A DNA stretch of 64,000 nt from Annona cherimola. Its lineage: Eukaryota; Streptophyta; Magnoliopsida; Magnoliales; Annonaceae. The stretch covers positions 36,814,012-36,878,011 of the forward strand of contig CM059971.1 of assembly GCA_030490835.1 (NCBI GenBank), read 5' to 3'. Positions 6,281-45,226 of this stretch are shown in pieces. The notes under the pieces were generated by a model. The model was given only the letters and a program-made list of their open reading frames with translations. It searched no databases and was not told the origin of the DNA. Position numbers and translations under genes: made by a program. Positions within the stretch are counted from its first letter, which is position 1, and the number at the start of each line of letters is the position of its first letter.

Positions 6281-7218
6281 GTCTCTCCTTGCAATCAAAA
6301 GTTCAATACAAACAAATAGGCCAAACTCCAAAAAATGCACCCAAAATAGTCCATAAGCAATTGACAAGTCAACCTCCACAAACCAATCACCAAGCTAATC
6401 AATAATCACCAAGCCAATCAAGCCAAACCAACCTCCAATCCGCCGCCCAATCCACACAATTCAACCAATCCAATCCAATTCTCCACTCAAACAATCACCA
6501 AACAACTTGCAAAGTACTTGAAATTCACCAAAGAACAGAAATTTTACCCCCAGGAGCTTGTCAATTTGAAGAACTGTAATTCTAGCGTTTCTGCACTAGC
6601 ACCGGGGCGCGGGGTAGCGGTGCTTAGGTGCAGATCTGCTGACAGCGGGTTTCAGCGCCAGGGCGAAGAAGATGAAGTTGATATGGCTCAAAATGGAGCC
6701 CAAATCAAGGGGGAAATGATGGGAAAGCTAATATAGGTGTGGGGCTTAGGATTTGGTAATGAAAAACTGGATTTTTTGGTGGATTTGAGTGGATCTAAGC
6801 AAAGGGGGAAAAAGAAAATGAAATGGAAAACGGAATGGATGGAATGGGAGGATGATTTCTTGATGAAATGTGGTTGGATTTAGGTTGAAATGGCTTGGAA
6901 TCAATGGGAGATTGATTGGCAATGAGAAAAAGGGAGTTTCGGCACCGAGGCATAGCGTTTAGGGCTTAGAACCCTAACCCCGAACTTTATAAGGCGTCTG
7001 GGTTGCGCTGTCCACGACCAGGCGCCGGGGCGCCAATTCATCCTCCGTGTTCTTCGGTTTCTTCATCACGGCGCCTAAGCGCCGATGTTCTTCAGCAAAT
7101 TTTTGAATTTTTCTCCTGGCTGCTTCCAAGCATGATCTTTGTGAAATTATGCTCCAAGTTATTTTCCTGAAAATAAAAAATAAAAACAAAAACACAAATC
7201 AAAATGAAAATGAGCAAC
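6281..7218 (-). other. Untranslated leader between gag-protease and 3' ORF of element B
   Basis: Non-coding DNA. It contains a minus-strand TATA-like box (TATAAAG, within 6,985-6,992), several GGCGCC-type palindromes at 7,020-7,090 resembling those in LTR B, and a purine-rich stretch at 6,780-6,940. No reverse transcriptase or integrase remnants are seen. Confidence 0.45.
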
Positions 7219-7244: not shown

Positions 7245-9982
7245 TTAACGTCCTCAGCCCGATGTTCCTGTTGGTTAATCTTCTTTCAATTTCACCACAT
7301 CGAACTCCCTTCTATTCGGACTGCAACACTGAAGCTTAGATCGACTCTTAGCCCCTTTAAGTGGATCAGTTAGTCTCTTCTCTTGAATTTCATGGGGACT
7401 GTAGACGAATTTGTCATGGTCTTGAATTAACAATGGCTCCCCATTTATGCATTGACCCATTGAGTCATACCGCATCTTGATTTCGGGAATACAAAATCAA
7501 GGTGTTTGGGTATGATACTGTCAAGCTTCTCAACTGCATCCCCTTCTATTCCTTCATCGACTTTTTCTTCCATCTCCTGGCTTTCCATCGGCTCAGTCAA
7601 TTGTTCGAGCCCGATATGATCAGTGAGTCGGTCTTCTGTATAAGCAGTTAACTCACGGTCCTTATTTGCAGTCTCCTTTGGGTCCTTCTCAATACCACTC
7701 GAAGAAAACTCTTGAACCTTTGAATTGCCCATATCAATCATTAAGCAATCCTCTGAATCAGTTGGGTGTTGCATTGCCTTGAGCACATTGAACGTGACTT
7801 TTTTATTTTGCACTTGTATGGTTAATTCTCTGGCTCGTACATTAATTATTGCATTGTCTGTTGCAAGGAAAGGCCGACTGAGAATGATGGGAACATCCTG
7901 ATCTTCTTCATAATCCAGGATAATAAAACCCGCAGGAAAGATGAACTTGTCCACCTTGACAAGCACATCTTCAATGATACCTTCTGGATATGTCGTGGAC
8001 CGGTCCGCCAGTTGCAACATTACTGTCGTAGGTCGAGCTTCCCCGATGCCCAATTTTCTAAAAATCGACTTAGGCATGAGATTAATGCTGGCTTCCAAGT
8101 GACATAGTACTCTCCCGAAGTATTGGTTTCCAATTGTGCACGGGATAGTGAAACTCCCTAGGTCCTTGAGCTTAGGAGGCAGCTTTCTCTGCACTATAGT
8201 ACTGGTTTCCTCTGTTAACGTCGTCGTTTCGAATTCCGTCAACCGCCTTTTCTTTGATAGCATGTCTTTCATGAATTTGGCGTAGCTCGGCATCAATTCC
8301 AAGGCTTCGACGAGAGGTATGTTGATATGTAGCTGCTTTAATGCCTCTAAAAATTTCTTGAATTGGCATTCCTTTTTAGTTTTTGCGAATCTCTGACGAA
8401 ATGGAGGAGGCGGCCTTTGGTTTGTAGCGATTTCAGCGTCCTGTTGCTTCTGGGTGGTATCTGGTTCTTCTGTTTCCTATAACTGCTAAATCAGAGGACT
8501 AGTGGGTTCAGTTACCGCTTCTAGTGGAATTGTGTTGGGTAACTGCTTTTCATTACGCAACGTGACTGCTTGAACTTGTTCTTTTTGCCTTTTCCTTTCG
8601 GATTTTGCTTTGTATCGCTTGGTAAGGAACCTTGAGGCCGATTATTTAGAGTTGAGGCCAGTTGGCCTATTTGTGCTTCGAAGTTCATGTTTGTCGTGAT
8701 CTGGGATTGCATAAATTGCATAAAGAGGTTTTCCATATCCGATTTCTTCTCTTCTCGCAGTGGTGGATTGAATTGCGTTGGTCTTGTTGGCTGTTGCTGC
8801 GGGGGCTGCTGCGAGAATTCTAGTGGCTGATTCGGCCTCGTCTAGTTGTTCCATGAGAAGTTAGGATGATTTCTCCAGCCTGGGTTGTAGTTGTTTCCAT
8901 ATGGATTTGCTGAATTTCTCTAAAAATTTTCCACGTAATTATTGAACTTCGGATTGGAGGCGCATTGATCACTGAGATGGCCGAAATCACCACACCACGT
9001 GCAAATTTTTGCTGTTGTCGGCTGTTGTGGTGTAGATGCCCCTAGTGCACTGATGTTGGTCGGCCTGGATAAATTTTGAATCTACCAGGATAAAGTGTCG
9101 ACGTGGGCTTTAATCGATGAAACTACGTCCAGTTGGAGTAGACCCCCATTTCGGCTTCTATCATATGGCAATTGATAGATATTAGCCGCCATATTTTCAA
9201 GTAGGGCGTATGATTCTCGATAGCTTTTCTTTAGCAGAGAATCATTTGACGATGAATCCACCATGTGACTGGTGGAATCCAGGAGACCATTATAGAAATT
9301 TTGTATTTGAACCCACGGTTGAATTCCATGATGCGGGCACTTTCGAAGCAAGTCTTTGAAACGATCCCACGCCTCTGATAAGGTTTCCTCTCCGTGTTGC
9401 TTGAATGAGACTATGTCCATTCTCAGCTTGGCTAACTTGGCAAGCGGGAAATATTTCTCCAGGAATTTCTGAGCCAAGTCGTTCCATGTGTTGACAGAGT
9501 TCGAGGGCAGAGAATCTAGTCATTCCAAAGCTCTATAGTCGCATTGCCTCGTCGGAGACTCCGTTCTGCTTGAACGTATTTATGATCTGCAGAAAATTCC
9601 GCAGATGGCGGTGTGGGTCTTCATATGCTAGACCTCCAAACTGCCCAATGGATTGGAGCATTTGAAAAATCACCGGCTTGATTTCAAAATTGTTAGTGTT
9701 GATAGGAGGAGGTGCGATGCTAGTCTGCACTGCATTCTGGCCCAGCGCAATGAGATCCCAAATGGGTTGGTCCAAATCATCTTGTGGTGGATGATTTGGG
9801 ACTTCAATCCTTTGGTTCCCCTGTTGGTTTGTGTGAACGTTCTCGTCCTGGTTCTCAATGCGCTCCATGGTATGCTGTTGGCTCCTAGCTTCCCTGCTCT
9901 TACGATGCCTTCTCAAATAAGTTCGTTCAGGTTCCGGATCAAAAGGAATAACAATATCCTTTCCGGCTCTGCCTCGGCGCAT
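7245..9982 (-). pseudogene. Element B gag-protease polyprotein, broken (Athila-type Ty3/gypsy)
   Basis: Minus-strand polyprotein in several frames. 9,533-9,982 is the gag start with 'NNFEIKPVIFQMLQSIGQFG'; 9,082-9,477 continues with 'FLEKYFPLAKLAKLRMDI' and 'RFKDLLRKCPHHGIQPW'; an intact C-x2-C-x4-H-x4-C knuckle ('CTWCGDFGHLSDQC') is encoded near 8,960-9,005; 8,521-8,854 is the linker. 7,445-8,302 is the protease segment with 'PSYAKFMKDMLSKKRRL' and the flap-side 'ILSRPFLATDNAIINV'. The catalytic D-L-G-A-S is changed to H-L-E-A-S, so the protease is dead. 7,275-7,475 completes the C-terminus after a frameshift. RT, RNase H and integrase are absent. Leader to the primer site is about 140 nt. 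Confidence 0.8.
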
Positions 9983-14628: not shown

Positions 14629-14992
14629 GGACCTCGATCGTATGCTACCGGAAGCATGCAGTACAGGTGCATACATCCATTTTTTTTTGAAATTTTTTTT
14701 ATAAAACTGTTAATATAAGTGTATTTAACAATTTTATAAATTTTTACCATTTTTGAAGTATTTTAGATATTTATTTTTTATTTTTAAAAATCAGCGGCAT
14801 TTTAGATAATTTTAAATTAACTAAAATGCCACTGATTTTTAAAAATTAAAAATAAATATCTAAAATATTCAAAAAATAGCAAAAATTTATATACATATTA
14901 AATATACATAGATTAACATATTGTAAAAAAATTTCAAAAAAAATAAAAATAAATAAATGTATGTACCCGAGAGAAGCATATGATCGTGGTCC
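14629..14992. mobile_element. MULE-type MITE with perfect 9-bp target duplication
   Basis: 364-bp non-coding element. It begins GGACCTCGATCGTATGCT and ends with the inverted copy of GGACCACGATCATATGCT. Its inner arms pair over more than 100 bp around a GGCATTTTAG...CTAAAATGCC core at 14,790-14,840. The 9-bp sequence ACCAGAATC flanks both sides (14,620-14,628 and 14,993-15,001). Terminal inverted repeats with a 9-bp TSD point to mobilisation by a Mutator-like transposase. No ORF. Confidence 0.8.
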
Positions 14993-22591: not shown

Positions 22592-23157
22592 GGGTAATTT
22601 GCATACATACCACGTAGTTTGACGCTAATTACAGATACACCCGCATAGTTCCATGAATTGTATATTACCCCTACATAGTTTTACCAAAATTGCATATTAA
22701 CCTCACATCGTTACCTGCCGTTAATATCTTGCCTGATATTTTGGAAAATGAAGAAAATATGCTTGTTAATAATTTGCATATATACCTATATAGTTTGAAA
22801 CTAATTGCAGATATAACCACATAGTTTGATGAATTGCATATTATCCCATATAATTTCATCAAAATTGCATATTAACCCCATGAAACTCTATGGGGTAATA
22901 TGGAATTTTAGTGAATTTGTGAAATTATATGGGTATATCTGCAATTAGTATTAAACTATGCGAGTGTATCTGTAAATTACCAATGAGGATATTGTCGTTA
23001 TTTTAGGCAAGGTATTAACGTTGGGTAATAGTGTGGGGGCTAATACGCAATTTTGATGAAACTATATAGGGGTAATATGCAATTCATGAAATTATGTTAG
23101 TATATCTGCAATTCGCGTCAACCTATGTGGATATATATATATATATACAAATTATCC
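22592..23157. mobile_element. Foldback element with nested inner inverted repeat, 9-bp TSD
   Basis: 566 bp. Outer arms of about 150 bp begin GGGTAATTTGCATACATACC and end as the inverse of GGATAATTTGTATATATAT. They flank an inner inverted repeat of the same sequence family centred near 22,885 (AACCCCAT...ATGGGGT). The flanks TTATAAAAC (22,583-22,591) and TTATAGAAC (23,158-23,166) match 8 of 9, the size expected for Mutator-like transposition. No ORF. Confidence 0.7.
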
Positions 23158-24191: not shown

Positions 24192-24558
24192 TTGAACTTA
24201 TTAGTCTGGGTTAATCAAATGTCTCACTTAGTCCACCTCAACAAATCTATTTATAATATTTTTTTCTTCATACCCTTGTTTATTTGAATGTATGTAATAT
24301 ATAAACCAAGTTTTACCATTTTTGGATATGTGTACAATTTTTGAGATTTTAAAACATTTATGTATATATATATATTTAAAATACCTTATTTTTAAAATCT
24401 CAAAAAAATATATACACATATCAAAAATGGTAAAACTTGGTTTTTATATTGAATACACTTAAATAAACGAATGTATGAAAAAAATAGAAAGTGTTTTAAA
24501 TAGGTTTTTTAAAGCGGACTAACCAAAATATTTGCTTAGCTTGGATTAACAAGATCAC
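24192..24558. mobile_element. MITE, family 1, copy 2
   Basis: About 367 bp. Left end TTGAACTTATTAGTCTGGG, right inverted GTGATCTTGTTAATCCAAGC. Arms close on ATATGTGTACAATTTTTGAG / CTCAAAAAAATATATACACA and ACCAAGTTTTACCATTTTTG / CAAAAATGGTAAAACTTGGT. Same family as 17,846-18,221. Non-coding. Confidence 0.6.
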
Positions 24559-25126: not shown

Positions 25127-25179
25127 TAAATTTATAACCATGTGATTAATATATATTACTTCATCATAACCTTTCCTGC

Positions 25180-27336
25180 ATGGTACCTTTTCGCACGGGG
25201 AAACCAGGTGAAAGGGGTTTTTTTTACGAAGGAAAAAATGGGATTGAGAAAGGGGCGGGAAGATCTAAAGCTGAAGAGCAACAGGAGGGTGATCAAAAGA
25301 TTCAGGACGAAAAGATTCATAAGGAGGAGAGAAATATGACCTGGAAAAGTGAAGATCTTCTGATGAAGGAGATGCAAACACTCATGATCGAAGTAAATGT
25401 CCTACCAAAAATTGATTTGAAAGGTAAATCAATAGTCCTAAGTTTGATCTGGTCCTCTAAAAGCTATAACAGAGAACTATACTGAGCAGCGATGCGATGA
25501 ATCTGGAAGACTAAGGGCAAGCTTGTTTTTTCAAAGGTAGATGAAAACTTATACAAGATCTTTGATATAGAGGAAGATAGGGCCCAGATTCTAAAAGGGT
25601 GGTCGTGGTTGCTTGACAAAAAACTGGTGGGGATCTCAGAGCTTAACGAGAGATTAAAAAGGGAGGAGATGGAACTTAATACAACCCCTATCCAGTTAGT
25701 CCTAAAGGAAATCTCGTTTATGATGGATCGAGCCACATCTGGAACAAGTATAAGCAGATCCTTTGACAAATGTGAAGATGTAATTCCAACAAAGACAAGT
25801 ACAAAGTTAAGGGTGCATATTGACATTAGATAACCGTTGAAAAGGGACATCTTTGTAAAGTGCGAGAAATCATAGAGAAGATGGATCCCATTTTAGTATG
25901 AAAGATTACCCATTTTCTACTACATATGTGGGAAATTGAGACATGCTTTTAAGGAATATGTGGATTTTGATTTGCACAAGAATAAGGCAGAGGCAAATCT
26001 CCCTTATGGATGCAACCTGAGGGTGGGGTTTAAGGTGCTTGGATTAAAGGGGGAAGGAGGATAGAGGAACCAAGTTTTCCCTAAAAACTATATGATGGAT
26101 GGTGTCACAACAAGAAGGGATGAGGATTTCATGGTAGACATGGAAGTGGAGGAATTCATAATGCAACCTTACATTTATAGGGGTAAAGGGAGAGAGAGTG
26201 TTTAGGAGGAAAAGAGGAAAAGAATAGTTTTGGGATCACTGAAGGAGAGAAACAAGGAAAGGGAAGAGGGAGAGGAAGGATGGATAAGAAACGATCTAGC
26301 CAGGGAAATTAGAAAGGACAGTTTAAGTGGGAAGTCAAGGGAAGGGTGAAGGAAAACATATAGCAGGAAGAAGGTAGGATAGACAAAAAATGAGGAAGCA
26401 TACAACACGGATTCGTATGAAGACCTGTTTGCAGAGGAAGATGATATTGATAACATAAAAAGATGGGTGAAAGAAGAAGGACATAATGAAATGGAAGAAG
26501 GGAAGGTGAATAAAATAGGAGGGAGGGGTATCACTGAGGATGAGTCATACTGTAGAAGTGAAGAAAAAGATAAAATAGTAGAGGGAAAATAGGGGGAGAC
26601 AAGGAAGAGAAAAATAAAAAAGGAGATCTGAAGGATAAAAAAAATGGGGTGAGAAGGAAGGGACATCAGGGTGGAAGGAGTAGTAAGGCAAATAGAAATA
26701 TGGAGTAAGGGAAGAATGAAAAGTTAGAAGTAGCTTTAGTAAGGGAGGAGGAGAATGCGAGGGCTATGGGAGAGATGGAGGAGAGGATGAGTTTAAAGGG
26801 AGAAATCAGATATATAAGTATGGGGAAGCGTATGGGGGCATTGACCATATTGAGGAGGGAAAAGAAAAGGGCAACAAGAGGATTGAAAATAATAAAAAAT
26901 GGAGAAAGAGAATAGTAGATGTGGCAGTGAGGAGAAGGAAATAAATTATAGAGGGGAAATGTTTCTTTGTTAGAGAGAGGAGAGTATAGCACCAAGGGAG
27001 AGAATGGAAAAAGAAGCGTAAGTAAAGCAAGTTCAGTTGAACAGGGAAAAACAAGCACAATGGGATTCAAAGGGGGTATGATGATAAGATGCTTGAAGAG
27101 GGGATATATGCTTTAAACCAGGAAAAGGAGCAGGCTACAACCTCCATGCAACCTAAGGCACTAACAAAAGTCACCACCAGAAAATGGTGCAGGATGAAAA
27201 GACAAGACGGGGAACTACCTGAGAGGAAGAGTAAGGGCCCAATGGGGGAACAAACGAGCAAGAAGAGAATTGGGGAGGAAGCAAGGTTGGGAAAAACTGA
27301 TGCAAACAGAATGGAGAAGAAACTGAAGGGGGGGTA
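25180..27336 (+). pseudogene. LINE ORF1 (RNA-binding protein with zinc knuckle), broken
   Basis: The DUF4283-like part is readable: 'VLPKIDLKGKSIV' near 25,410, 'WKTKGKLVFSKVDENLYKI' near 25,510, 'KGWSWLLDKKLVGI' near 25,610. The knuckle region near 25,905-25,955 reads 'FYYICGKLRHAFKEC' (C-x2-C-x4-H-x4-C form lost at the first Cys, now Tyr). From about 26,160 onward it becomes a Lys/Glu/Arg/Gly-rich tail from a strongly purine-biased strand. Several stops (about 25,483, 25,831 and more beyond) break it. It would have bound LINE RNA in the ribonucleoprotein. Confidence 0.7.
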
Positions 27337-27402
27337 ACATTACATCGAGTCTAATGGATGGATTGGTGGAGGCTGAGCTCACATCTCAGCCCCACCAAAA
27401 AA

Positions 27403-28663
27403 ATGAGTCTAATAACTTGGAACTATCGTAGGCTTGGGAAACATCGAGTAGTTCGAAATTTGCTTGACATGGTTAAGAAAAAAATCTCATTCTGATGTTC
27501 CTTATTGAAACTAAAAAATCTAAGAGGGAAATGGACTAGATCAGAAGAAGGGTGAGATTCTACGTATGTTTGTTAGTTGATAGTGATGGGAGAAAAAGAG
27601 GTTTGGCTCTTCTTTGGAGAGAAGAATGGAATGTAAACATCAAAGTTATTCCAAGAATCATATTGAAGTTGAAATTGTTAATCAATAAGGGGCTAAAAGC
27701 TGACAGTTAATTGGATTTTATGGAAATCCTAAAACGGTGAGGAGAAGGGAGTCATGGGAGCTCTCAAAACAACTGAGTACAAGTAGCATTTTACCTTGGA
27801 TGATAATGGGAGACCTCAATGAAGTGTCAAGACCATAAGAAGTAATCAGTCACAAAGGAATGAAAGATAGATGGAGGACTTTAGAGAAGTGGTGGACCTT
27901 GGTAATCTTGAGGATGTGGGCTTTGTGGGTGCAACAATGACCTGGAGGAACAACAAATGTGGTAGGGAAAGGGTTAAGGCAAGTCTGGATCAAGGCCTGG
28001 CAACTCCATGCTAGATAAGTAAGTTCCTTAATGCCAAATTATACCATCTGGTGTCTTCATCTTTTGATCACTGTCCCATCATGATGGTAATAAATGATAA
28101 AGTAAATAAAAGAAAGCCCCCAAGGATGTTTATATATGAATTGTTCTGGGTTGATGACAAAGGCTTAGGCGATTGTGGAAAGTTCAAGGAAAGGGGAGCA
28201 ATAGGAAGACAAAGCAGATGTGTCGACATTGCTCACAAAATCCAACTGTGTAACCGAAAGCTGAGTGAATGGAACATAACGAAGAGGGGCAACACAAAAA
28301 AGCCATTGCTGAGTCACAAACAACTCTTCAAGCACTAAGGATGACACCTACATTAGACCTCAGGGACAAAGAAATTAGAAACTTGGAGAGGATAATAAAC
28401 CAACTACTTCTGGACGAGCAAATCATTTGGAAACAATGTGCAAAAGCTCATTGGTTGCAGCCACAAAGTGGCCTCAAGCAAGAGAAGAATGAATAGAATC
28501 ATTTGTCTCCAAGATTATGGGGGCAGGGAGGTTTGAAACCAACAAGACATGGAAAAGTTGGCAAATGACTATTTCCAGGATTTATTTACTAGTTCAAATT
28601 CAACCCAAATGGAAAGGATATTTGATTTGTGGAAGAGGAAGATTCTGAGGGAGGAAAATGCCC
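27403..28663 (+). pseudogene. LINE ORF2, endonuclease and linker, broken
   Basis: Begins 'MSLITWNYRRLGKHRVVRNL', the usual plant L1 ORF2 start with the W-N-x-R-G-L-G motif (here Y and R substitutions). Further blocks: 'KRGLALLWREEW' near 27,600, 'MTWRNNKCGRERVKASLD' near 27,940, 'SSSFDHCPIMM' near 28,050 (the S-D-H motif of the endonuclease, with Phe before Asp). It contains several stops. This APE-type endonuclease would nick target DNA. The frame is cut at 28,663 by a solo LTR and resumes at 30,187. Confidence 0.75.
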
Positions 28664-30181
28664 TGTTGTAAACATGTGGCAAATTAAGCACAATCTATAT
28701 TTTGATGATTAGCAACTCAATTTGAGAAATATCAAGGTACTAATGTGATGTTAAGTGATTTAAAGGTTTACATATTCAACGGTCAAGAGCTTGGCAGGCC
28801 AAGTCACATGCTAAGTCGACTCAGGCATCGACTTCAAGGCTCAATTTTTCGACAGCGCTGAAATCTGGACATTTGAGCAGACGAAGTCACAACCGAAGTC
28901 AACTTAGGTGAAGTCGCAAAATCAAGTTGACTCCACCTGCGACTTGAGAAATATTCAAAGATTAGAGTTGAAGATGACAATGTCAAGTCGCATTTCAAGT
29001 CGACTTCTTCATACAACTTGAACGAAGTAGCACCCGAAGTTGACTCAGACTCTCGACTTGAATGGAATTAAAAATCAAGATGTTCCTAAACTCTTTATTC
29101 AGTAAGATAAAGTCCAAATAGGTTACATAAAGTTCTTATCAAATGCTCGAGAACTATTGAACAAGCTCAAATATCAAGAAGAATGAATGGAACTCGAACT
29201 CAAATGAAGACTTATATGCATGAAATATGAAAAGCAAGGAAAGACAAACAAACAAAGAAGATCACATTGTGCTAAAGCTCCAAGAAATTAGATAGCTGGT
29301 GAAGTCGCAACCCAAGTCGACTTCACCTGCGACTTGGGTCAAGTTTGAAGACCAAGTCGACTCAAGTTTGGAACTTGACTGAAGAAGCTAAAGACTGAAG
29401 TCGCATCCGAAGTCGACTCCAGTTTGCAACTTAAATGAAGTCGCAACCCAAGTTGACTTCAAGTGCAACTTGAATCGTAACGGTCGAAAAAATTCGAACG
29501 TTTGCGCATTAAATGTGAGCCACCTACCTCCAAATGTTTGAATTTACTCTCCCTTATTTAAGACACTTCAAATGAACGGGATAGGGCAGAGAAACAGCAT
29601 TGATTGAGCTCAACCTCTTTATTATCAAGCATTTATGTGTTCTAAAAGAAAGTTTTCAAAAAAAACTCAATGACAAGCTGCTAAGTGCTGAACTGTTCCA
29701 TCATCAACTTTTTCTATAAGTACTTTTCTGTGTAAGAATCTGTCTCTACACAACTGTAAAGTGTAGTATCTTTTTCTATTTATTAATCATTTGTATTCCA
29801 CTTGGTTTAGTATTGGAGACTAAGACCAAGTGAAGGCAAAGTAGCGTGTAATTGAAGTGCAACTCGTCACCTACTTGTGCTAAGTTTGTATAAGGCCTCA
29901 TAGAGCTGAAATCTAGAAGAGAGCAAGGGCTCTGTTGTATTGCTATCCTATTTAGTGGAACCCAAGACACTAAGGTGTGTTCTTGGAGGAGTAGAGTAGG
30001 GATGGTTGTCCCGAACCACTATAATTTCTTAAGTTTATTGTTCATTGCTCTTATACTTCACGTTTTTCATTCGAGGGGATTAAAATTCTCAAGGGGTTAA
30101 TTTTTCCAATTACGAAAGAATTTTTCAAAAACTCAATTTACACCTCCCCTCTTGGGCTTTGCCACAAACTCGGGACGAACA
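28664..30181 (+). mobile_element. Solo LTR, Ty1/copia (SIRE/Maximus-like), copy 1
   Basis: 1,518 bp, TGTTGTAAACATG...CGGGACGAACA, flanked by TGCCC (28,659-28,663) and TGACC (30,182-30,186), 4 of 5 bases matching. The U3 carries degenerate repeats of AAGTCGCA...TGCGACTT around GTCGAC sites; the end contains 'CACCTCCCCTCTTGGGC', a motif I associate with SIRE-type LTRs. Deleting it with one TSD copy leaves the LINE frame open through the junction (E-N-A-R-L-T-R-P). No internal retroviral genes, hence solo. Related to 31,582-33,245. Confidence 0.8.
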
Positions 30182-30186
30182 TGACC

Positions 30187-31562
30187 GACTTACCAGACCG
30201 GTGGAGATGGATGAAGTTCAGAGGGCCTTAAAAGAAATGAAACCAACAAAGGCACCGGGACCTGATGGGATGAGTACAGGCTTCTATCAAAAATGTTAGA
30301 ATGTGGTGGGCCAAGATATCTTCAAAATGTGTAAGGATTTTTTTTAATGCAATAACCCCAATGAAAGAAGAAGACAAATGCATGCTATTAATAGGAAATA
30401 ATAGTTCTTATAATAAAGAAATGCGGGGCAAATCAAATGGAGGATTTCATACCGATAAGTTTATGTAATGTAGCTTATAAGATTAGTGTAGAATCATTGC
30501 AAATAGGCTGAAGGGATGCTTGAATTTTATTATATTGGAATGTTCGAATGATTTCGTCTCGAGCAGGCTTATCACAAACAACATGTTGATTGTTTACGAG
30601 CTAATCCACCATATGAGAAAGAGAAGGGGAGGAATGAAGGAAGAGGTAGCAATGAAGATATACAGTCAAAAGCTTATGAAAGAGTGGAATGAGGCTTTTC
30701 GTGGCAAATGTTTCAATGTATGGGCTTTTGCGAACAATGGGTAGGATGGATACAAAGTTTTCTGACAATAGTAAGGCATAGAGTGAATATAAATGACTTT
30801 TTATCCGATCTCTTTTGCCCTAGTAGGGGCCAGAGATAGGGGAACCCTTTATCCTCTTATCTATTTCTAGGGTATGTTGAAGATCTATCTTTGTTGTTTG
30901 ATAATGGAATTCAGAGAAAAGCCCCATCTCCAATTAGAATTGTTCCTAGGGGGCCAGAAATCTCACATCTATTTTTTGCTAATGACACCTTACTATTCTT
31001 GAAGGCAAACACTTGTGAGATTCAAGAATGCTGAAAATTTTGAAAATTTATGGTGAATGCGTGGGTCAAAATGTAAACATCAGTAAGACGAATCTCCTTT
31101 TCGGCACAAAATACCAAACAAGAAACAAAATTAGCTACAAGGGAATTGATCACAACTAATGGGGGAGACTTCAACAATATCCAGGACTGCCTGCCTAGTT
31201 GGGAAGATCAAAGAAGTTGACTTTCATGTGTTTGAAGGAGAGAGTCTGGAAGAAACTGCAAGGATGAAAGGAGAGGATGTTGTCATCAGGGAGAAAGAAA
31301 TTCTCTTAAAGGTTGTTACCCAAGCCATTCCCTACTACATAATGAGTTTGTTCCTTCTACCTAAAAGCTTTTGCGGAGAACTGAATGGTTTAATCAGTAA
31401 ATTTTGGTGGGGATTTAATGGTAAGAGGAGGAAGATAAGCTAGATTTCTTAGAAGAAAATGTGCAAGTCAAAAATGCATGGTGGATTAGGGTTCAAAGAT
31501 ATTGCAACTTTTAATTTAGCCATGCTAGCAAAGCAATGTTGGTATCTCCTTGGAAGATCATC
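30187..31562 (+). pseudogene. LINE ORF2, reverse transcriptase domain, broken
   Basis: Opens with 'RALKEMKPTKAPGPDGM' (30,225-30,272), then 'ANRLKGCLNFIILE' and 'SSRLITNNMLIVYELIHHM' near 30,500-30,620, the classic plant L1 RT blocks. The catalytic F-A-D-D motif reads F-A-N-D at 30,975-30,986, losing the first Asp. 'SISRTACLVGKIKEVD'-like and 'QAIPYYIMSLFLLPKSFC' blocks follow, with 'FWWGFNGKRRKI' before the RT thumb region. Multiple stops. Interrupted at 31,562 by the long gypsy-type LTR. Confidence 0.8.
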
Positions 31563-31581
31563 TGTGATACCCGGACCTAAG

Positions 31582-33245
31582 TTTTAGAAACATGTATTGA
31601 AATTAATAACAAAATAAGCCAAGTCTATGTTTTGATAATTAACAAATCAATTTGAGTAAGTTTTGGTTACTAACATATTTGTGAGATGATTAAAGGTTAT
31701 AAAAATGAAGAAAATGAAGCATGACAGGTCAAGTCGACTCCAACAGCGACTTCAAGAGGCATTTTCTGTCCAGAGTTGAAATCGAGGAGCAAAGCTGCCG
31801 AAGTCGCAAACGAAGTCAACTTCGCATGCGACTTGGGTGAAGTCGCAGACCAAGTCAACTCCAGCATCGACTTCAAACATGATTTTCTGTCCAGAGTTGA
31901 AATTGGGGATGAGAGCTGCCGAAGTCACAGACCAAGTCGACTCCACATGCGACTTGGGTGAAGTCGCAGGTCAAGTCGAATCTAGCTTCGACTTCAGACT
32001 GACAGCACGCATTTTGAAGAGCTAAGTGGCAAACCAAGTCAACTCAATACTCGACTTGAGTTAAATTGAAGACCAAGTAGACTCAAATATTCGACTTAGG
32101 CCAAATGAATATCAAATCAAGGCCAAAGCAAACAAAGTTGCATGTATTCATCATGAAAATCAAGATCACACATTTCATGTACTCCAAGATTCAAGGATTC
32201 AAAGTTTATAAGTCACGGAGCTAAAGGACATCAAGCTAGGATGAATATACTGAGTTTCAAATGACATAAATCAAGGGAAGTACATTAATTTGAAGAAATT
32301 AAGTGACCAAAGTTATCTCCAAGAATTTCAAGTTCATCAAGCAAGCTAAGGAAGTGAAGTCGCACCCGAAGTCGACTTCACCTGCGACTTGGGTCAAGTC
32401 CAAGACCAAGTCGACCCGAGGAAGAACTTGAATAGCCTGAGCACAGCTGAAGTCGCACCCGAAGTCGACTCCATCTGCGACTTGGGTGAAGTCGCACCCG
32501 AAGTCGACTCCACCTGCGACTTGGGTCGTAACGGTCGAAATTTTTTTGAACGTTGGCGCATTAAATGCGCGCCACCTACTTCCAAACGTTCGGATTCTCT
32601 TGCCATTTATATAAGGCATTCAATATAAACGTAGAGGGTAGCTGAAAAATCATTGATTGAGCATAACTCCCATCTCTAAGAGCATTAAGTGATCAAGCCA
32701 ACATCTAGAAGAAGAACCTTGATTTCAAACTGCCAAGAGCTGCTTGCTGAATCATTAAGTCTACTCTACAAGTTCTTCTCTGCGCCAAATCTGCCTCTGC
32801 ACATTAGTAACGTGTAGAAACTTTCTTTTATTTTCTCTTGTTGTATTAAACTTGATTTAGTTTGGGTAACTAAGATCAAGTGTAAGAAAAGTAGTGTGTG
32901 ACTGGAGTGGAACTCGTCACCTACTTGTGTTGTGTGTTGTTTATGCCCCTAGAGCTAGAATCTAAAAGAGAGCGGAGGCTCTAGTTGTATTTATGAAATA
33001 CATAGTAGAACCCAAGTCACAAAAGGTGTGAGCTTGGAAGAGTGGAGTAGGGAAGATTGCCCGAACCACTATAAAACCTTGTCTATTAATTTATATTCCT
33101 GCTCCTATTATCTTATTGCCTTCCTTTTATTTCATTAAAGGGGATTGGACCAAACCGGGGTAAAGTCTCTGTTTAAGTTTAAAAATTTTAATTACCCAAT
33201 TCACCCCTCCCCTCTTGGGTATTTGCCATTAACTCGGGACCAACA
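31582..33245 (+). mobile_element. Solo LTR, Ty1/copia (SIRE/Maximus-like), copy 2, nested in the gypsy-type LTR
   Basis: 1,664 bp flanked by identical CTAAG (31,577-31,581 and 33,246-33,250). It begins TTTTAGAAACATGT, aligning with TGTTGTAAACATGT of copy 1 (the terminal TG is mutated), and ends CTCGGGACCAACA. Its repeats AAGTCGCACCCGAAGTCGAC are better preserved than in copy 1. A TATA-like box (TTTATATAAGG) is near 32,606. 'AACTCGTCACCTACTTGTG' and 'ACCCCTCCCCTCTTGGG' are shared with copy 1. Confidence 0.85.
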
Positions 33246-34574
33246 CTAAGTAAGGCTTATATATATACAATTAGCATATAAATATGAATCACGTATGGTT
33301 TAGTGGAATTAAAATGATTTTTCTAAGCAATATTGATGATTTATTGCGATTAGGACAAGTGATTATGAATGATCAATATAAGCCGATATGGAACAATGTG
33401 ATTAAAGAGGCTTAATGAAGATTAGAAAATGTGAATATATTGAGGATAATTATCTCATGTATTATGGTTTAACTAATGGAGATTATGATGTTAATTATGG
33501 ATTAAAGGAGGCAATTGCTAGAAAATCCATAATTCGACGCCGAGAAGGCGGATTAAGATGAAAATTGAAAGGTAAGCACATAATTTTGTGCTTAATCATA
33601 TAGAAATATTGGATTATGAAAATATTGATGAAATTAAGGTGGAAAATCGATCATCACCATCAAAAACCTAAAGATGGTTTCAAATGAACATAAATTGAGC
33701 TAGAAAAGTTGGATTGAGATGAAATTTGAAATGAACGGTTAAAATTATGAGATTAATGCAATGAGAAGATTGAATTAAGCTAATGATGCTAAAATCTAGT
33801 GATTAATGACATGATTTAAAGGTTATTGGATTAACTCAAAGGAGCATGAAATAGGTGGCATGGAATGGACGTCCAAACTAGCCCCTAAAGTGGATTTTTG
33901 TGAAATATTTTTTAATAAAATATATGCCCAAAGTAAACTATGGATTAAGGGGATTAAATTTGTATTAAATTGGAGTGGAAATTCGTGGCTAAAGGCATCA
34001 GATCTGGACCGTAGAGATGTGATCAATTAATGGACAGCAATGGAGCATGGGAGAGAGGTGCACGGTCAAGCAGCTTTTGGAATTTTTAATAATTTTTTTA
34101 ACAGCTAAATTGACCCCTAATTAAGATAGTTACCTAGGTTGATTAAACACCCATTAATTAAAGTGAAAATTTGGTGGAAAAATCGTTCAAAAAGCTGCTG
34201 CAAGTGGACCCCACCAAAGTGGACAGCAAGTGCACAGTAGGAGATGTGGATGGTTAGGCTGCTGTATTTGTTTTTTTTTGTTTTTTTAAATAAGATAAAT
34301 TGACCCCTAATTAGGCTATTAACTAGGGTGGGTAATTATCCATTAATTAAATTAAATTATGTGTGGAAAAATCGTGCAAGGGCTGTTAATTAGGGTTGAC
34401 TAAGTGGACAGCTTTATTTAAAAGCTGGATATGGTTGTGGAAAAAAATCCGAAAATAATATTAAATGATTAAATATATGGCTGAAAATTTTTGAGTAAAC
34501 TATAGGGTAAATTTTAAAAACTTTAACCTCCATTTTGGGTCAAAATTTTAAAGGAAAAATTGAAAAATAAATGC

Positions 34575-34583
34575 TTATATAAG
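34575..34583 (+). promoter_or_regulatory. TATA box of the long gypsy-type LTR
   Basis: TTATATAAG followed by a GC-richer stretch, about 1.3 kb (nested LTR excluded) from the LTR start. It divides U3 from R-U5. Confidence 0.45.
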
Positions 34584-37417
34584 CGGGCAATGCGGACGTT
34601 CCAGATTTCTGTTTAGGAGAAAAAAAAATCAAAGGGGCAGTGGCTGGAACGATCCAAGGGAAGAAAAGAAGGGGATTTAAAGTGCTCAAAGGAGGGATTA
34701 CCAATTAATCAAGTAAGTATATGTTAATTTTGATTTTATACTTCAAATTTGGAAGTTATATGATGTTATAAACCAAAATATGAAAGAAATAGTAAAAAAA
34801 TATTTTTACCATGAAAATTTGTTCAAAATCTCATTATATGATGATTAAATAAATAAAAAATTTTCAGCTCAAAAGAGTAAGTCTGATAGAAATTAAAAAT
34901 CTGAGAAAATCAACCTAAACAGGGTTGAATGGGTGTCAGGATTATCAGAACTAAATGATTTTTAATAATTTTTATACACTTAATTTTAGGCTAAATATTT
35001 TACAAGATATATAATACATATATATTATCACAATAAAAAAATAAAAAGTACGTTTTGATGGGTATAAATATACCCCATAATTCACGTGATTAGGGCTGAC
35101 CCTAAACTCACAACACTGTCCAGCACAGTGAAAATGTCAAAATAAATATTTAATGTTAATATTTCGTGCTGAAATATTTATGAAGGTTAATTCATGTATT
35201 TATTGATGTATGATAGAAATTTCAGAATTAAATACCTTGATTTTATTATAAATCAAGATTTAGATAAACCAGTACGCCTGATTTCAGCATATGTGGACAG
35301 TTTGAGAAAAAATCAAAAAGAAATATGAAACCTATGTAGAAATGATCCAAATTGATATATATGTTAGGCAAGAGTGTAATAAAGGATTATGAATAGCAAG
35401 GGTGATTGATAATTTATACGTATAGGCTATGTGCTAAGTATGAGTACCCGACTTGAAGGACAAGTGGATCAAGCTAAGTCCAAATGAATTTATGTAGGTT
35501 GGAAAACCTAAGGGATTTATGTATTTGAAGTTGATGTGAATAAATGAAATATTATTTTCATTTATCTAGGCAAAGGCAAGGAAAAGAATGAAAGAAAAGG
35601 ATTATGGCGATCTCAGGTAAACAAGCGAACTTTGTAAAATGCTATTTTCTTTCTATGTGATTGATATAATTGAAATGTTTATGTTTATATTTTAATGAAT
35701 GGGCAAGCACAAGTTTTGAAAATGATAACTTTAATGAAAAACCACAAGTTTTGGAAAATGACGGCTTTAATGAAAATTCGTACGTTTTGGAAAAGAATGG
35801 CTTTAAGGAAAAGCCTCAAGGTTTGCTTCATGGGAAGCAAGCAATACGTTTTAAGATAAGGATTTTATCATCAGTGTTGCCAAAGATTGGCAATGCTTTA
35901 TGTTAAAATGATTGAGAAATTTGCTTATGAGTAAGTAAGTTCTCCATGATAATGTTTTCAAAGGATTTCATGTTTGATGTCGATGGTTTTAAGAATTTAC
36001 TTTTAAAAGCAAGTTCTTTATGATGTTGTTTTCAAAGGGACTTTATAAGAAAAAGAGAATTTTTCTCTTTTTTCACAAAGAAATATTATCAGATAAGTTT
36101 TGAGTTCTCTTTTGATATTTTATGATAAATGATTAAGCTTATAAAAGAAAAAGATTGATTTTCTATGTCATGATATTTAATTATAAATGATAATTTTGGA
36201 CATAGCCCGTATGTTTTAAAATGATATTCGAAAAGTTTTGATTTCCTTTAGACAAGGAAATCTATGTCTTGAAAAATATTTATACAAATGTTGTTGAATA
36301 GGATTTAAGGATGACCAACCTAATAAATGATTTCATAAAATGGTTTAATTTCAGGTTGCTAAATGGCACGCAAAAGACTATGCAATTCCCCTTTTAAGTA
36401 AAAATAGTGTAATAGATATGTGGACAATAATCTAATTTTTAGGTTGTGGAAAAGGGGATGATATAATTGCATAACTTTTGTAAGCAAAAGGCCTTGAAAT
36501 GGAAGCCAAGAAAATATTAGAGAAATATATGGTTTATTTTTGAAAATCCAAAAGTTTTGAATTTCTTTTATTATAAGGGTTTTTAAGATGTATTATTTCT
36601 CAAACATTTCAAATATTTATCAAAATATTTTACTCAAAATATTTCTAAAAGAATTTAAGGAAGGTCATCCTAAAATTAAATTTCAAATGACAACTTGTTT
36701 AAAGTGGGTGCGCTCACTTTACAAGTTAACATGGATTGCGGTCTGTGATGTGTTTTTTGAAAATGATTTATTTTAAAAAGACACAAACTTTAATCTGTGA
36801 TGTTTTTAAGTTATGGATGCAGACAAAGATCTATGATCCCGGTTTAAAAGGACATAGGCTGTGGTCTGTGGTTCTCTAAACCAAACGGACTACGATCCGT
36901 CAGGATAATATATGGTGCACCAGTACAAGGAACAGGCCGGTTGTAGAGCACGATTGGGATGACCAGGGCTCACTCTACATATGGTCAAGTCGCTAAGGGA
37001 TGACAAGAGTGCCAACGGCGCCCTCCCTGAGATGGGAGCAGGATAAAGGAACAGCCGCCTAGCTAGCATGCTGTTAAGGATTCTCTTCCAAAAGGTAGCA
37101 TGATCACTTGCTAAGTGTCACTACTAGATGGAGAGAAATGTGTTTGCATACGTTTTGCTTTTCAAAAGCCCAAAGATTGGGATATAAAAGCATTTATATG
37201 AAAAAGTTATCCTAAATTGGATTTTTATGAGCTATTATGTATAAGTTACCCTAAAAGAAAGGGTATTTTACACAAAAGTGTAAATAACAGTAATAAAAGA
37301 AAATGTTTGTATGCAAATACATTTATGAAAATAGTTTATGTATTTTATATGCCTTGTTTGTTATAAACAAGCCCCAAGACGGGGACTATGAAAAGGATTT
37401 ATGTCAAACTTGTTTTC

Positions 37418-37960
37418 GGACATAAAAATGTCCATTATTAAAGAGCCTAAATGAAAAGTGTTTATGAACATGAGAATGTCCAATGCCATTGTGTTTTAAT
37501 AAAAGGTGTTTTAGGACATATGAATGTCTATTGCCAAAGGAAGCTATGTGAAAAATGTTTTGAGACATTAAATGTCTTTTGACTAAAGGATTTTATGATA
37601 AAAAATATTTTTAGACATAAAAATGTCCTTTGCCGAGAAAGGCTTATGTGAGTGATGTTTTAGGACATGAGAATGTCCTCCTTTGCCAAAAAAATTATGA
37701 GAAAAATGTTTTGGACGTGAGACGTCCACCGACAAAAGATGGTTTTATGTAAATGTCTTGGAACATTAGAAATGTTCACTCGAGACAAAAGAAAATTAAT
37801 TAAAGAGGGTAAAACATGTATGTTTTGCCTTAACAAGCCCAGACGTGGCTTGAAAATGATTTTAAGAATGAATATTTTATGATAATGTTCGATGAAATAG
37901 AATTGTCCTTATGAACACAGGATTTCATGATAATATTTTAGGACATATAAATGTCCTCAA
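37418..37960 (+). repeat. Ladder of GGACAT-n-ATGTCC palindromes in the long LTR
   Basis: About nine short imperfect palindromes recur in roughly 540 bp, mostly 45-65 bp apart: GGACATAAAAATGTCC (37,418), GAACATGAGAATGTCC (37,466), GGACATATGAATGTCT (37,514), then further copies near 37,563, 37,613, 37,663, 37,712, 37,762 and 37,944. Each is followed by a degenerate unit with TTTATG-type sequence. A decayed tandem repeat whose palindromic core is conserved. Confidence 0.65.
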
Positions 37961-38534
37961 GAAAAAGGTGTTCAAGATGTTTAATGAAATGATTTTCAAG
38001 GAAGTCTTGCCCTAAAAGATAAAATGTTTGCTTACTGAGTTGTTAATCACGTTTTGTTTTTTCAAACCTTAGACAGGTACCGGAAAACTCAAGGAGATGC
38101 AAATCTAAGCAATGTAGTAAGGCATGAGATGATGGCCAGGTAGGCTATAAGGAATGGGAAAGCATGAATATGCTAAGGTATGTAAATGTGTATGTGAACT
38201 TAATTAGAATTTTAAGTTCTATATGATTCAATGATTGAATGTATGGATGTATTGATGTAAAATATGATGATTTAGTCAAGGAGACTTTCATTGTAGAAAA
38301 GCAGGATGAGATGCTATGAAATAGAATTTCAAATTTTATTACAAGTGTATCGTCACTTGTTTTGATGAATGATGTGAAAGGTAAAGATATGAACGATGAT
38401 GAACGAAAAAAATTTGGATGAGTTCCAATTAAGAAACCGCCGCGTGATCAGGACAACAATCCTTATTCACATTTACCAATCGATAAGGTCTTGAGATAAG
38501 GAAGTGATGTCTCGGTTTGGGGCGCCACATCATC

Positions 38535-39960
38535 CTCATTATGCAGCAGAATTCTAAAAACTAAATATCTAGAAGGGATGACTTGTGGATGTGCAGTGAA
38601 AAGCCAGGGGATTCTTATACTTGGAAAGGATTTCTAAGAACTAGAGGTGTAATGGAAAGGGGTGGAAGACGTCGTATAAGAAATGGGAGTTTTGTGCATT
38701 TCTTTAAGGATAGGTGGACTAGAATTGAGTTATGGAAGGCCGGTCCGCTTGTGGGGGATATATCTGAAAAAGAGTGCGTTAAAAATTTCATTGATCAGAA
38801 AAATGAAAAATAGAAGCAAACGAAAATTATTGCTACTGTGGGAGAGGTCTCTTGGAGGGAGATAAGTTAGATTCCCATTCCGGGGTTTGACATTGAGGAC
38901 AACTGGTTTTAGGAAGCAGAGCCTAATGGAATTTTCATTGTAAGATTAGCATACAGGCTTATCCTAACTGACAATTCTATTTTGCAGGTCCTAAAAATCA
39001 AAGGAATGAGCGAAGACTATTAGAGGAAAGATACATATATAAGAAGATCTGGTCTACTAAAATCCCAAACAAGATCAAGGTGTTTACTTGGAGGATGGTA
39101 AGGAATGCTCTACCAACAAAGATCAACCTCAACAAATGGGGTGTCCAGGTTAGTCCCAGCTGCAACTTCTATAATAGTGAGGTTGAGGATGCTCAACATC
39201 TATTTGTTTTTTTGTGGAAGGATAAGGGAATGCTGGTATATGATAGAAACTTATGGATGCCATTTGCTATCATAAAATGCATCCTTATGCAACTATAGAA
39301 GGTAAAAAGAAATGATTCAATGATCCTTTTTATGCTTTTGTGCTAGAGGATTTGGTTTCTACGAAACCAGTTAAGGGACAGGAGAATCCAACCACAATTT
39401 AATCAAATTTTAGAATTTTGCAAAGAGTATTTAGATGAAGTAAAAGATGCAAATCTCATAAGTAGAAGGGGTTGGATGTATGAAGAGCTAAATCCAAGAT
39501 GGATAAGACCTGATAAGAATTTTTTGAAAATGAATGTGGATGGCTGTAGAAATTTTCAAGGTGATTGTATGGGTTGGGGGCTATTTTGCATGAATCCAAT
39601 AGCAAATTCATAGCAGCAAAGTGTTAGAAAGCCGGAGGCATAATGGATGCCATTAATATGGAGATGAAGGCAATCATCCACGGAATCAATTGGGGAGTGG
39701 AGCTGGGTCCGCAAAGGCTAGTTTTGGAAAGTGACTGTTTGATATTGGTAAAATTTAAATGGAGAAGTGTCCATTTTGTCATCATAGGGTTTCTCATCAA
39801 GGAAACAAAGACCATATCATGACAGTTCCAAACTATTAGATTTCTCTATGTTCTACGATTAGGAAATGATGCTACCATCAGTTGGCAACTCTAACTATAA
39901 ATATGGATGTTGATGCAAGGACTTGGGAGGGAACCCCTGCTTCCAAAATTGCAAATCCTC
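38535..39960 (+). pseudogene. LINE ORF2 C-terminal part: zf-RVT and RNase H, broken
   Basis: Resumes after the LTR with 'SLCSRILKTKYLEG', then 'DSYTWKGFLRTRGVMERGGR' and 'RIRNGSFVHFFKDRW' (38,600-38,715). The zinc-binding RVT module is at 39,035-39,210: 'IWSTKIPNKIKVFTWRMVRN', 'ALPTKINLNKWGV', then C-x2-Y (C expected) and 'AQHLFVFLW'. The RNase H-like start 'FLKMNVDGCRNFQGDCMGWG' is at 39,523-39,580, with stops soon after. This is the normal domain order of plant L1 ORF2 C-termini. Confidence 0.75.
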
Positions 39961-40089
39961 TGTATTTAGACAGCTTGGGTTCTTTTTAAATATAATACGA
40001 TATTATCAATCAAATATATATATATATATTACTTTATCTTGTGAGCCTAATTTTCACTCATGATTATTTTTGTCATGTGATTTAATATT

Positions 40090-40763
40090 GGGGAGTTCCC
40101 AAATATACCTACGTATTTTATCCAAAATTCCTCTTATACCCATGGATTTTCAAATATTCCTCTTATACCCACGAATTTTTTTTATTATTCCCCCCATATT
40201 CATGCTGTTAAAAATGAAAAGTTACAGATGTTGACTCTTAGTTGCAATGACATTTATGCCCATAGTGAAAATGAATTTTTATATAGACAACTCATCTCAT
40301 GGTAGAATGTGTGGCAGAAACCATAAGCAAACCGGTGTGTAATTTTTTTTAGTCATTTCTGTGTATACCCTTTGCCTACATAGAGATCATTATAGTGAGG
40401 GTTTCAAAAATGCAAAAAGATCATTGCAGAGCATAAGATTGTTGCAACTACGACACCTTCCTCTTTGGATTCTGTGCTATCATTCAACAACAATTTATCA
40501 GCGTTTTCTGGCTGTTTTTTTCCTATATCCTCCACTGATAAGATCCAAATTACCATTCATGTATATGTAAATGCGTGGGTAATTTCGGTATTTATTTAAT
40601 ATAAATAATAAATAAAATGAAAAATCCAGATGATAATAAATGGTTGGTAACGACATGGGTATGTGGGGAATAATAGGTAAAATTCGTAGGTATGACACGA
40701 ATATTTGAAAATCTATAGGTATGAAAGGAATTTTGATTTACATGATATATGTAGGAATTCTCC
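40090..40763. mobile_element. Foldback/MULE-type MITE with exact 9-bp target duplication
   Basis: 674 bp. Arms of about 115 bp: left GGGGAGTTCCCAAATATACC, right inverted GGAGAATTCCTACATATATC. Both continue with ATTTTCAAATATTC and TACCCACGAATTTT / TACCTACGAATTTT. TTTAATATT flanks both ends (40,081-40,089 and 40,764-40,772). The 300-bp centre has small open frames without recognisable domains. Confidence 0.75.
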
Positions 40764-44397: not shown

Positions 44398-44539
44398 GTC
44401 GAGCATTAGCAACGTACTGACGGTCCAAATTTCATTTGGGACTTTGGTACGTCCGATAGGTAAAATCAAATGCTTTTAGGCCATTATGCGCAGCATATGA
44501 CATATCATTTTCACGCGAAATTATTATTATTATATTTGC

Positions 44540-45226
44540 GTGTCGTTATCAGCAACCGAGTAATTCAGTACGGAGTCGTTATACTCGCGCGAGTATGATT
44601 GGGGGAACAGCTTCGCGTGTGGACAAAAATTCGGCTGACGTGTACGGCAGAGAAGAAACGAAAGATCGCCCGCATTCCGTTGGGGCGAGCGAGAAACGCC
44701 CAAAAGCCTGAATGCAGCAGTCACGTGAATGGCCTTCAAACCAGTAACGTAAAACTCCTTTTCTTTGCTCACATCCGTTCCTCTCCGTCCCGTTCCGTTC
44801 CGTTGCACTGTCCTCGGCAGCACGCGCGCACGCACCCACCCACTCGCCCGCCCATGCAACAAAATCCATTTGCATATACCGCGAAAGCGCATGCACACAT
44901 ACTCCCCGTCCACACGGTTTCGGAAAACCCACCACCCCACTCGTGCCCATGCACCACACGTGCCGCTCATCCGAGCGGTTCACGCAATGGACGGCTGAGA
45001 TTTGAGTTTTTTAGGATGTACGCATGCTGCCAAAATGCAGTATTTGATTAGCGGGGTCTGTACACCCATGCAGGTGCACACGTGGTAGGGTGATGATCAG
45101 GAGTGCAGAGGACATTTTCTGGCCAACGCCACCTAGACTCCACCTTCTGACCTTTTTCTTTCATGCGGGTGTGATGGGATAGGATGATGCCCGCTCGAGC
45201 CGGCCAGCATTGCCTACAACCTCAGC
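44540..45226 (+). promoter_or_regulatory. GC-rich promoter region of the SWEET gene
   Basis: Base composition rises sharply compared with the AT-rich surroundings. CACGTG-core sites lie near 44,956 (CACACGTGCC) and 45,079 (CACACGTGG). Repeated CCGTTCCGTT and CACGCGCGCACGC runs occur at 44,780-44,840. Open frames on both strands here come from composition and show no domain; I regard the stretch as upstream regulatory DNA. Confidence 0.5.

What the first reader, a model, noticed from the sequence alone, without database searches (positions are those of the whole stretch)
31563..38529. Three-level nesting proven by target duplications and frame continuity
A copia-type solo LTR (CTAAG/CTAAG) sits inside a gypsy-type solo LTR (TCATC/TCATC), which sits inside an L1 LINE ORF2. 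Removing the gypsy LTR and one TCATC rejoins the LINE reading frame exactly (...L-G-R-S-S / S-L-C-S-R...). The order of events is therefore fixed: LINE, then gypsy element, recombination to solo LTR, and the copia insertion after the gypsy integration. Clean solo products at each level suggest frequent LTR-LTR recombination here.
Basis: partly seen in the sequence, partly recalled or inferred. Interest (0 to 1): 0.75.

Follow-up and report, generated by a model that had tools for sequence, protein, structure and literature searches.

The report
Old LINE carrying nested solo LTRs
A worn-out plant LINE retrotransposon was hit by other retrotransposons, one of them landing inside another, and only their terminal repeats remain, so most of the order of insertions can be read; this is ordinary plant-genome history.

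Summary
Outer LTR G (31563-38529) has a TCATC duplication and inner LTR B (31582-33245) a CTAAG duplication. The LINE frame rejoined across G is matched without a gap by 67 of 69 spanning relatives, and a LINE paralog in the same genome is uninterrupted there. Own-genome relatives show both are true LTRs: B belongs to a Ty1/copia family; copies of G end at the same base and, in elements that keep an internal region, are bounded by a tRNA-Met-type primer site and a polypurine tract.

Corrections: (1) A second, related copia-type solo LTR, A (28664-30181, TGCCC/TGACC), lies in the same LINE ORF2 and was missed; it too restores the frame. (2) 'Gypsy-type' is only indirectly supported: G's family looks non-coding (LARD-like, long LTRs around about 2.5-2.6 kb), with partly Del/Tekay-like ends. 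(3) Whether B arrived before or after G became solo is not fixed. (4) 'Frequent recombination' has modest support: of 29 other G copies, 7 are solo LTRs with exact duplications; 10 belong to 8 elements with an internal region. (5) The LINE may have its own 17-bp duplication.

The parts
25149..25165 (.). Candidate left target-site duplication of the LINE (17 bp, one mismatch to 40022-40038)
   Evidence: 7 of 451 dinucleotide shuffles give at least one such 16-mer pair; TA-rich, tentative
25166..28663 (+). LINE, 5' part: zinc knuckle of ORF1 near 25882-25956, start of ORF2 near 27403, to the insertion of LTR A
   Evidence: zf-CCHC_4 2.6e-8; frames. The 5' limit is tentative; endonuclease not tested
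28659..28663 (.). Left target duplication of LTR A, TGCCC
28664..30181 (+).
   Evidence: 67.4% identity to B over 1489 sites; 65.7-67.8% to seven LTRs of B's family; frame restored without it
30182..30186 (.). Right target duplication of LTR A, TGACC (4 of 5)
30187..31562 (+). LINE ORF2, middle part (reverse-transcriptase region)
   Evidence: relatives carry PF00078; own pieces gave no RVT match in Pfam
31558..31562 (.). Left target duplication of LTR G, TCATC
31563..38529 (+). LTR G, outer solo LTR (5298 bp without B and one CTAAG), probable LARD-like family with partly Del/Tekay-like ends
   Evidence: 32 of 39 other scored copies end exactly at 38529; start preceded by PPT and end followed by PBS in elements with an internal region
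31577..31581 (.). Left target duplication of LTR B, CTAAG
31582..33245 (+). LTR B, inner solo LTR of a Ty1/copia family (1664 bp)
   Evidence: full-length relative L011 with copia gag, integrase and RVT_2
33246..33250 (.). Right target duplication of LTR B, CTAAG
37418..37957 (+). Array of short hairpins (type GGACAT..ATGTCC) inside LTR G
   Evidence: 8 hairpins in 37300-38000 against a shuffle mean of 1.0, maximum 5 of 200; fold z -5.05; conserved in copies
38530..38534 (.). Right target duplication of LTR G, TCATC
38535..40021 (+). LINE ORF2, 3' part: zf-RVT at 39044-39295, RNase H-like stretch near 39503-39592 (by eye), 3' end tentative
   Evidence: zf-RVT 3.6e-17
40022..40038 (.). Candidate right target-site duplication of the LINE

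Best explanation
An old L1-type LINE inserted first. LTR retrotransposons then integrated, each duplicating 5 bp of target: a copia-type element in ORF2 after base 28663 (leaving LTR A) and a long-LTR, probably non-autonomous (LARD-like) element in ORF2 after base 31562 (leaving LTR G). A copia-type element of a related family later integrated 19 bp inside an LTR of the second (leaving LTR B). In each case crossing-over between the two LTRs of one element removed its internal region and one LTR and left a solo LTR between its target duplications. Shown: boundaries, duplications, frame continuity at two joints, LTR identity of B and G, LINE before A and G, G before B. Inferred: recombination within one element as the deletion route; movement of G's family by enzymes of another element; A as an LTR (by similarity to B and its own ends). 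Not resolved: A against G and B, and B's arrival against the recombination of G's parent.
For: Exact TSDs for G and B and 4 of 5 for A. Joint at G: 67 of 69 spanning relatives ungapped; own-genome LINE paralog continuous through it, 69% over 779 columns. Joint at A: the 5 relatives that span it with E of 1e-8 or better are ungapped. B: full relative L011 with two LTRs, TSD ATAGG, copia domains. G: 32 of 39 other copies end at 38529; two-LTR relatives with PBS, PPT and TSD GATTG; 7 other copies with LTR start and end readable are solo LTRs with exact 5-bp TSDs. Divergence agrees with the LINE being oldest: best own-genome match 75% over 397 bases against 92-93% for B and G.
Against: A's TSD has one mismatch and its own-genome search did not complete. 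B lacks the canonical TG. Two of the 69 relatives at the G joint have gaps. Pfam found no RVT domain in the LINE's own pieces. Only one paralog was fetched for the DNA-level empty-site comparison.
Confidence: 0.95

Rival explanations
1. The outer unit is not a solo LTR but a complete short element, or an internally deleted one, with its own small terminal repeats.
For: At 5.3 kb it is near the upper end of LTR lengths scored in a plant survey (LTR-FINDER limit 6000 bp, passage of PMC6317226).
Against: No terminal direct repeat inside it. In relatives the whole unit occurs twice around an internal region with PBS and PPT.
Confidence: 0.02
2. The flanking 5-mers are chance matches and the boundaries were chosen to fit.
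For: Five-base matches are short; in AT-rich DNA 4 of 5 matches are common (2.4% of random pairs), which weakens A's TSD taken alone.
Against: Independent agreement of termini in relatives, TSDs and reading frame at two joints, and solo copies with exact TSDs at 7 other loci.
Confidence: 0.01
3. B was inserted in the 5' LTR of a still complete G element, and the LTR-LTR recombination came afterwards.
For: B lies only 19 bp from the LTR start, so almost any crossover between 5' and 3' LTR would keep it (inference).
Against: Nothing here speaks against it; equally, insertion into an existing solo LTR fits.
Confidence: 0.4

Closest known systems
Nested plant LTR retrotransposons and solo LTRs (PMC6911290 and PMC7251063, passages seen)
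   Same: Insertion of one element in another, 5-bp TSDs, solo LTRs from recombination between LTRs; a well-surveyed phenomenon.
   Different: Host here is a LINE, and the remains are solo LTRs only; a difference of detail.
LARD, large retrotransposon derivatives (passages of PMC7215508 and PMC8268840; the original Kalendar 2004 not held)
   Same: Relatives of G have two long LTRs, PBS, PPT and TSD, and an internal region alignable among copies without detected coding sequence.
   Different: Internal region (2.5-2.6 kb) shorter than one LTR (4.6-5.6 kb in the two elements measured); no sequence comparison with known LARDs was made.
Ty3/gypsy Del/Tekay chromoviruses (PMC4029996, passages seen)
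   Same: LTR start matches 8 of 10 bases of the commonest maize/sorghum U3 site; LTR end has GGG at -8 to -10 (type A U5 site).
   Different: U3 position 6, named among the most conserved, differs; no gag-pol or chromodomain found.
Ty1/copia elements (family of B, relative L011)
   Same: Domain set of copia elements; 1.65 kb LTRs; TSD of 5 bp.
   Different: Lineage (SIRE or other) not determined.
L1-type plant LINEs
   Same: ORF1 zinc knuckle, zf-RVT after the reverse-transcriptase region, relatives with PF00078, PF13966 and PF13456.
   Different: Heavily decayed and split by insertions.

Membership tests
Ty1/copia (LTR B) | copia-type gag, integrase before reverse transcriptase (RVT_2) in a full-length relative with the same LTR | tested here: met
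   L011: Retrotran_gag_2, Pol_BBD, rve, SH3_retrovirus, RVT_2 in this order between two LTRs
Ty1/copia (LTR B) | TG...CA ends and 5-bp TSD | tested here: inconclusive
   TSD exact, 3' end CA, but 5' end TT; relatives have TG
Ty1/copia (LTR A) | LTR of a full-length copia element | tested here: inconclusive
   Only by 67% similarity to B over its whole length; own-genome search for A not answered (the last try)
solo LTR (G) | one LTR with both termini, intact TSD, no PBS or PPT next to it | tested here: met
Ty3/gypsy Del/Tekay (family of G) | conserved U3 and U5 terminal sites | tested here: inconclusive
   U5 type A GGG present; U3 8 of 10, differing at positions 4 and 6, 6 being one of the most conserved
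Ty3/gypsy Del/Tekay (family of G) | gag-pol with chromodomain | tested here: not met
   No such ORF in the copies examined: ORFs under 120 aa in the first 1.5 kb of 8 internal regions and in the whole internal region of two; so not filed as a member, only as possibly moved by one
LARD (family of G) | long LTRs, conserved non-coding internal region, PBS and PPT | tested here: met
   28 of 28 pairs among 8 internal starts align, over 67 bp to 1.6 kb per piece; PBS and PPT; small sample of the family
L1-type plant LINE | ORF1 zinc knuckle and ORF2 with reverse transcriptase and zf-RVT | tested here: met
   zf-CCHC_4 and zf-RVT; 104 relatives, many with PF00078; no RVT match of its own
L1-type plant LINE | variable-length TSD and A-rich tail | tested here: inconclusive
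   16 of 17 bp candidate TSD, TA-rich; no clear A tail

The most novel reading that the evidence does not exclude
The outer LTR belongs to a numerous non-coding family whose two very long LTRs (4.6-5.6 kb measured) are each about twice as long as the 2.5-2.6 kb internal region, with partly Del/Tekay-type ends and a conserved hairpin array in the LTR: a LARD moved in trans by a Del-like chromovirus and often reduced to solo LTRs.
Probability: 0.5. Interest if true: 0.3.

Novelty: new member of a known kind. Interest (0 to 1): 0.15.

Why it matters
It gives a frame-verified relative order of insertions at one locus and shows that an apparently plain 'gypsy solo LTR' belongs to a long-LTR family that seems to be non-coding. 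Nesting and solo LTRs are routine in plant genomes, so this is a worked example and no surprise; the long-LTR family could serve to study how LTR length relates to solo-LTR formation.

Tried and rejected
Rejected: G as a whole short element (two-LTR relatives exist); chance TSDs; internal gag-pol or primer site in the interval (18 of 39 ORFs given to Pfam). Led nowhere: paper search for the motif TGTGATACCC (19 papers hold it, 10 listed, unrelated by their titles); Kalendar 2004 not held; Pfam on three ORFs of internal regions of G relatives; own-genome search for LTR A (not answered in six tries). Not done: metagenome or viral-contig scans, structure prediction, species identification, lineage of the copia family. 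The hairpin array was checked for covariation: stems hold in 935 of 972 cells of 27 distinct sequences (29 segments including the window; one of 29 other loci left out for coverage), but departures are mostly single changes of the C-to-T or G-to-A kind, so it is no evidence of selected pairing; two other stretches of G also exceed their shuffles in hairpin number.

Full report
What was claimed and checked. The coordinates hold: G 31563-38529 with TCATC on both sides, B 31582-33245 with CTAAG on both sides. Random 5-mer pairs of this window are identical in 0.174% of 200,000 draws and agree in at least 4 of 5 in 2.4%.

Reading frame. A 449-residue query of LINE ORF2 pieces joined across G found 104 relatives; those rows that name an organism name flowering plants, and many carry PF00078, PF13966 or PF13456. 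With the segment around the joint all 104 hit; 69 reach 10 or more residues past it on both sides; 67 of 69 have no gap in the stretch compared. Of the two with gaps, one lies at the far edge of the stretch (P0051), the other is a 4-residue gap three residues before the joint (P0098). In the same genome one fetched LINE paralog (L068, C2:80145600-80146700) aligns through the joint, 69% over 779 columns with scattered small gaps. The LINE's own pieces match Pfam in two of seven cases (zf-RVT 3.6e-17, zf-CCHC_4 2.6e-8); no RVT match was obtained.

A second copia-type LTR. Self-comparison exposed LTR A at 28664-30181, same orientation, 67.4% identical to B over 1489 sites, K2P 0.43. It begins TGTTG and ends GAACA, with TGCCC on the left and TGACC on the right. 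Without it and one duplication copy the LINE frame is continuous: of 14 rows at E up to 10 among the 104 proteins, the five with E of 1e-8 or better span the joint and are ungapped; two chance-level rows (E 3.8 and 9.3) span it with gaps; seven do not span it. A is 65.7-67.8% identical to seven LTRs of B's family, B itself 89.5-91.7% (LTRs of five of the loci L002-L008 and both LTRs of L011; L004 and L007 not used). So A is of a related but distinct family.

B is copia. Own-genome search with 31563-32500 gave 68 matches, 40 scored of 8386 candidates. Three copies (L002, L003, L006) have a purine tract directly before TGTTGGAAAC. L011 has two LTRs, TSD ATAGG and ORFs with Retrotran_gag_2, Pol_BBD, rve, SH3_retrovirus and RVT_2; its LTR pair differs by K2P 0.042. 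B's leading TT is therefore a changed TG. The lineage within copia was not determined.

G is an LTR, apparently of a LARD-like family. Own-genome search with 37500-38560: 42 matches, 40 scored of 6618 candidates; of the 39 copies other than the window 32 end exactly at 38529, 4 run 3-16 bases further, 2 stop 2 bases short and 1 stops far short. Search with 33246-34300: 54 matches, 40 scored of 4687 candidates. On C7:63709743-63723527 two LTRs of 5621 and 5646 bp (94.0% identical, K2P 0.0625) flank 2518 bp; the first LTR is followed by a tRNA-Met-type PBS, the second preceded by a polypurine tract, and GATTG lies on both sides. On C2 the LTRs are 4619 and 5251 bp around 2595 bp, with flanks agreeing in 4 of 5 bases. 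In L048 (C4) the internal region is about 2.6 kb; its LTRs were not measured and the first carries another insertion. In 8 loci the beginnings of the internal region align in 28 of 28 pairs, L017 only over about 0.3 kb, and hold no ORF above 119 aa; Pfam found no retroelement domain in three such ORFs. The ends resemble Del/Tekay attachment sites as described in passages of PMC4029996: GGG at -8 to -10 is met; the start agrees in 8 of 10 bases with the commonest maize/sorghum site but differs at position 6, one of the most conserved. Membership in Ty3/gypsy is therefore an inference.

Census of G copies. Loci L012-L041 are 30 of the 40 scored copies; L012 is the window. Of the other 29: 7 are followed by a PBS or PBS-like site (5' LTRs: L016, L017, L023, L029, L031, L035, L038); 3 are 3' LTRs (L018 and L032, partners of L016 and L031, and L039, preceded by a purine tract); 7 are solo LTRs with exact 5-bp duplications (L015, L021, L027, L033, L034, L036, L040); 2 (L013, L014, same flanks, probably one duplicated locus) agree in 4 of 5; 10 were not resolved: for 7 no LTR start was found in the 1-kb stretch fetched (L019, L020, L022, L024, L030, L037, L041) and for 3 none was fetched (L025, L026, L028). 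That is 8 distinct elements with internal region against 8 solo LTRs including the window. Copies were picked for similarity to the window, and unresolved ones may be 3' LTRs, so this is no unbiased rate.

Order and age. By containment: LINE before A and G, G before B. A is not ordered against G or B. B sits 19 bp inside G's LTR; in a complete parent a B in the 5' LTR would survive almost any crossover, so B may predate or postdate the recombination (inference). Divergence agrees with an old LINE: its best own-genome DNA match besides itself is 75% over 397 bases, 40 scored of 317 candidates, while the best relatives of B and G are 92% and 93%. CpG observed/expected is 0.26 in the LINE, 0.59 in G, 0.71 in A, 0.75 in B, which may reflect base composition as well as age. 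Solo LTRs cannot be dated from a pair of their own.

The LINE as an insertion. A 17-bp near-repeat (one mismatch) lies at 25149-25165 and 40022-40038; 7 of 451 shuffles gave at least one 16-mer pair as good. If real, the LINE is 6361 bp without inserts. The repeat is TA-rich and no A tail is seen, so this is tentative.

Verdict. Papers were seen as passages (PMC6317226, PMC7251063, PMC6911290, PMC4029996, PMC7215508, PMC8268840) or search listings. Any further likeness to Tekay, SIRE or named LARDs is recalled and untested.

Noticed in passing
window 1692-1797 and 9323-9429 (+): Two Rfam snoR71 matches; the second lies antisense within an ORF matching Retrotrans_gag (9085-9519 -) and the first between retroelement-like ORFs on the - strand, so these 'snoRNA' matches may be retrotransposon sequence.
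   Followed up: partly
window 37418-37957: Array of short hairpins (GGACAT..ATGTCC type) in LTR G, above shuffles and kept in other copies; function unknown, little covariation.
   Followed up: partly
window 26001-28000: Strong purine bias on the + strand (GC skew 0.51, AT skew 0.33), falling in the LINE's ORF1 region and the start of ORF2.
   Followed up: no
window 14680-14946, 22745-23004, 24262-24484, 40123-40735: Inverted repeats with arms of 63-133 nt, 73-86% complementary, perhaps MITE-like elements; two of them share sequence.
   Followed up: no
G000 C2:33987049-34075563 (L024, L025, L026, L028): Four G copies on one strand; three show identical bases after the LTR end, two of them 7.07 kb apart, which suggests a tandem segmental duplication.
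   Followed up: no
window 5885-6394 (-): ORF with a match to Transposase_32 (putative plant transposon protein), 44.3 bits against a cut-off of 45, near a gag-bearing retroelement region.
   Followed up: no
window 44530-45051: Overlapping open frames of 143-150 aa on both strands in a GC-richer patch; no Pfam match for the two tested.
   Followed up: no
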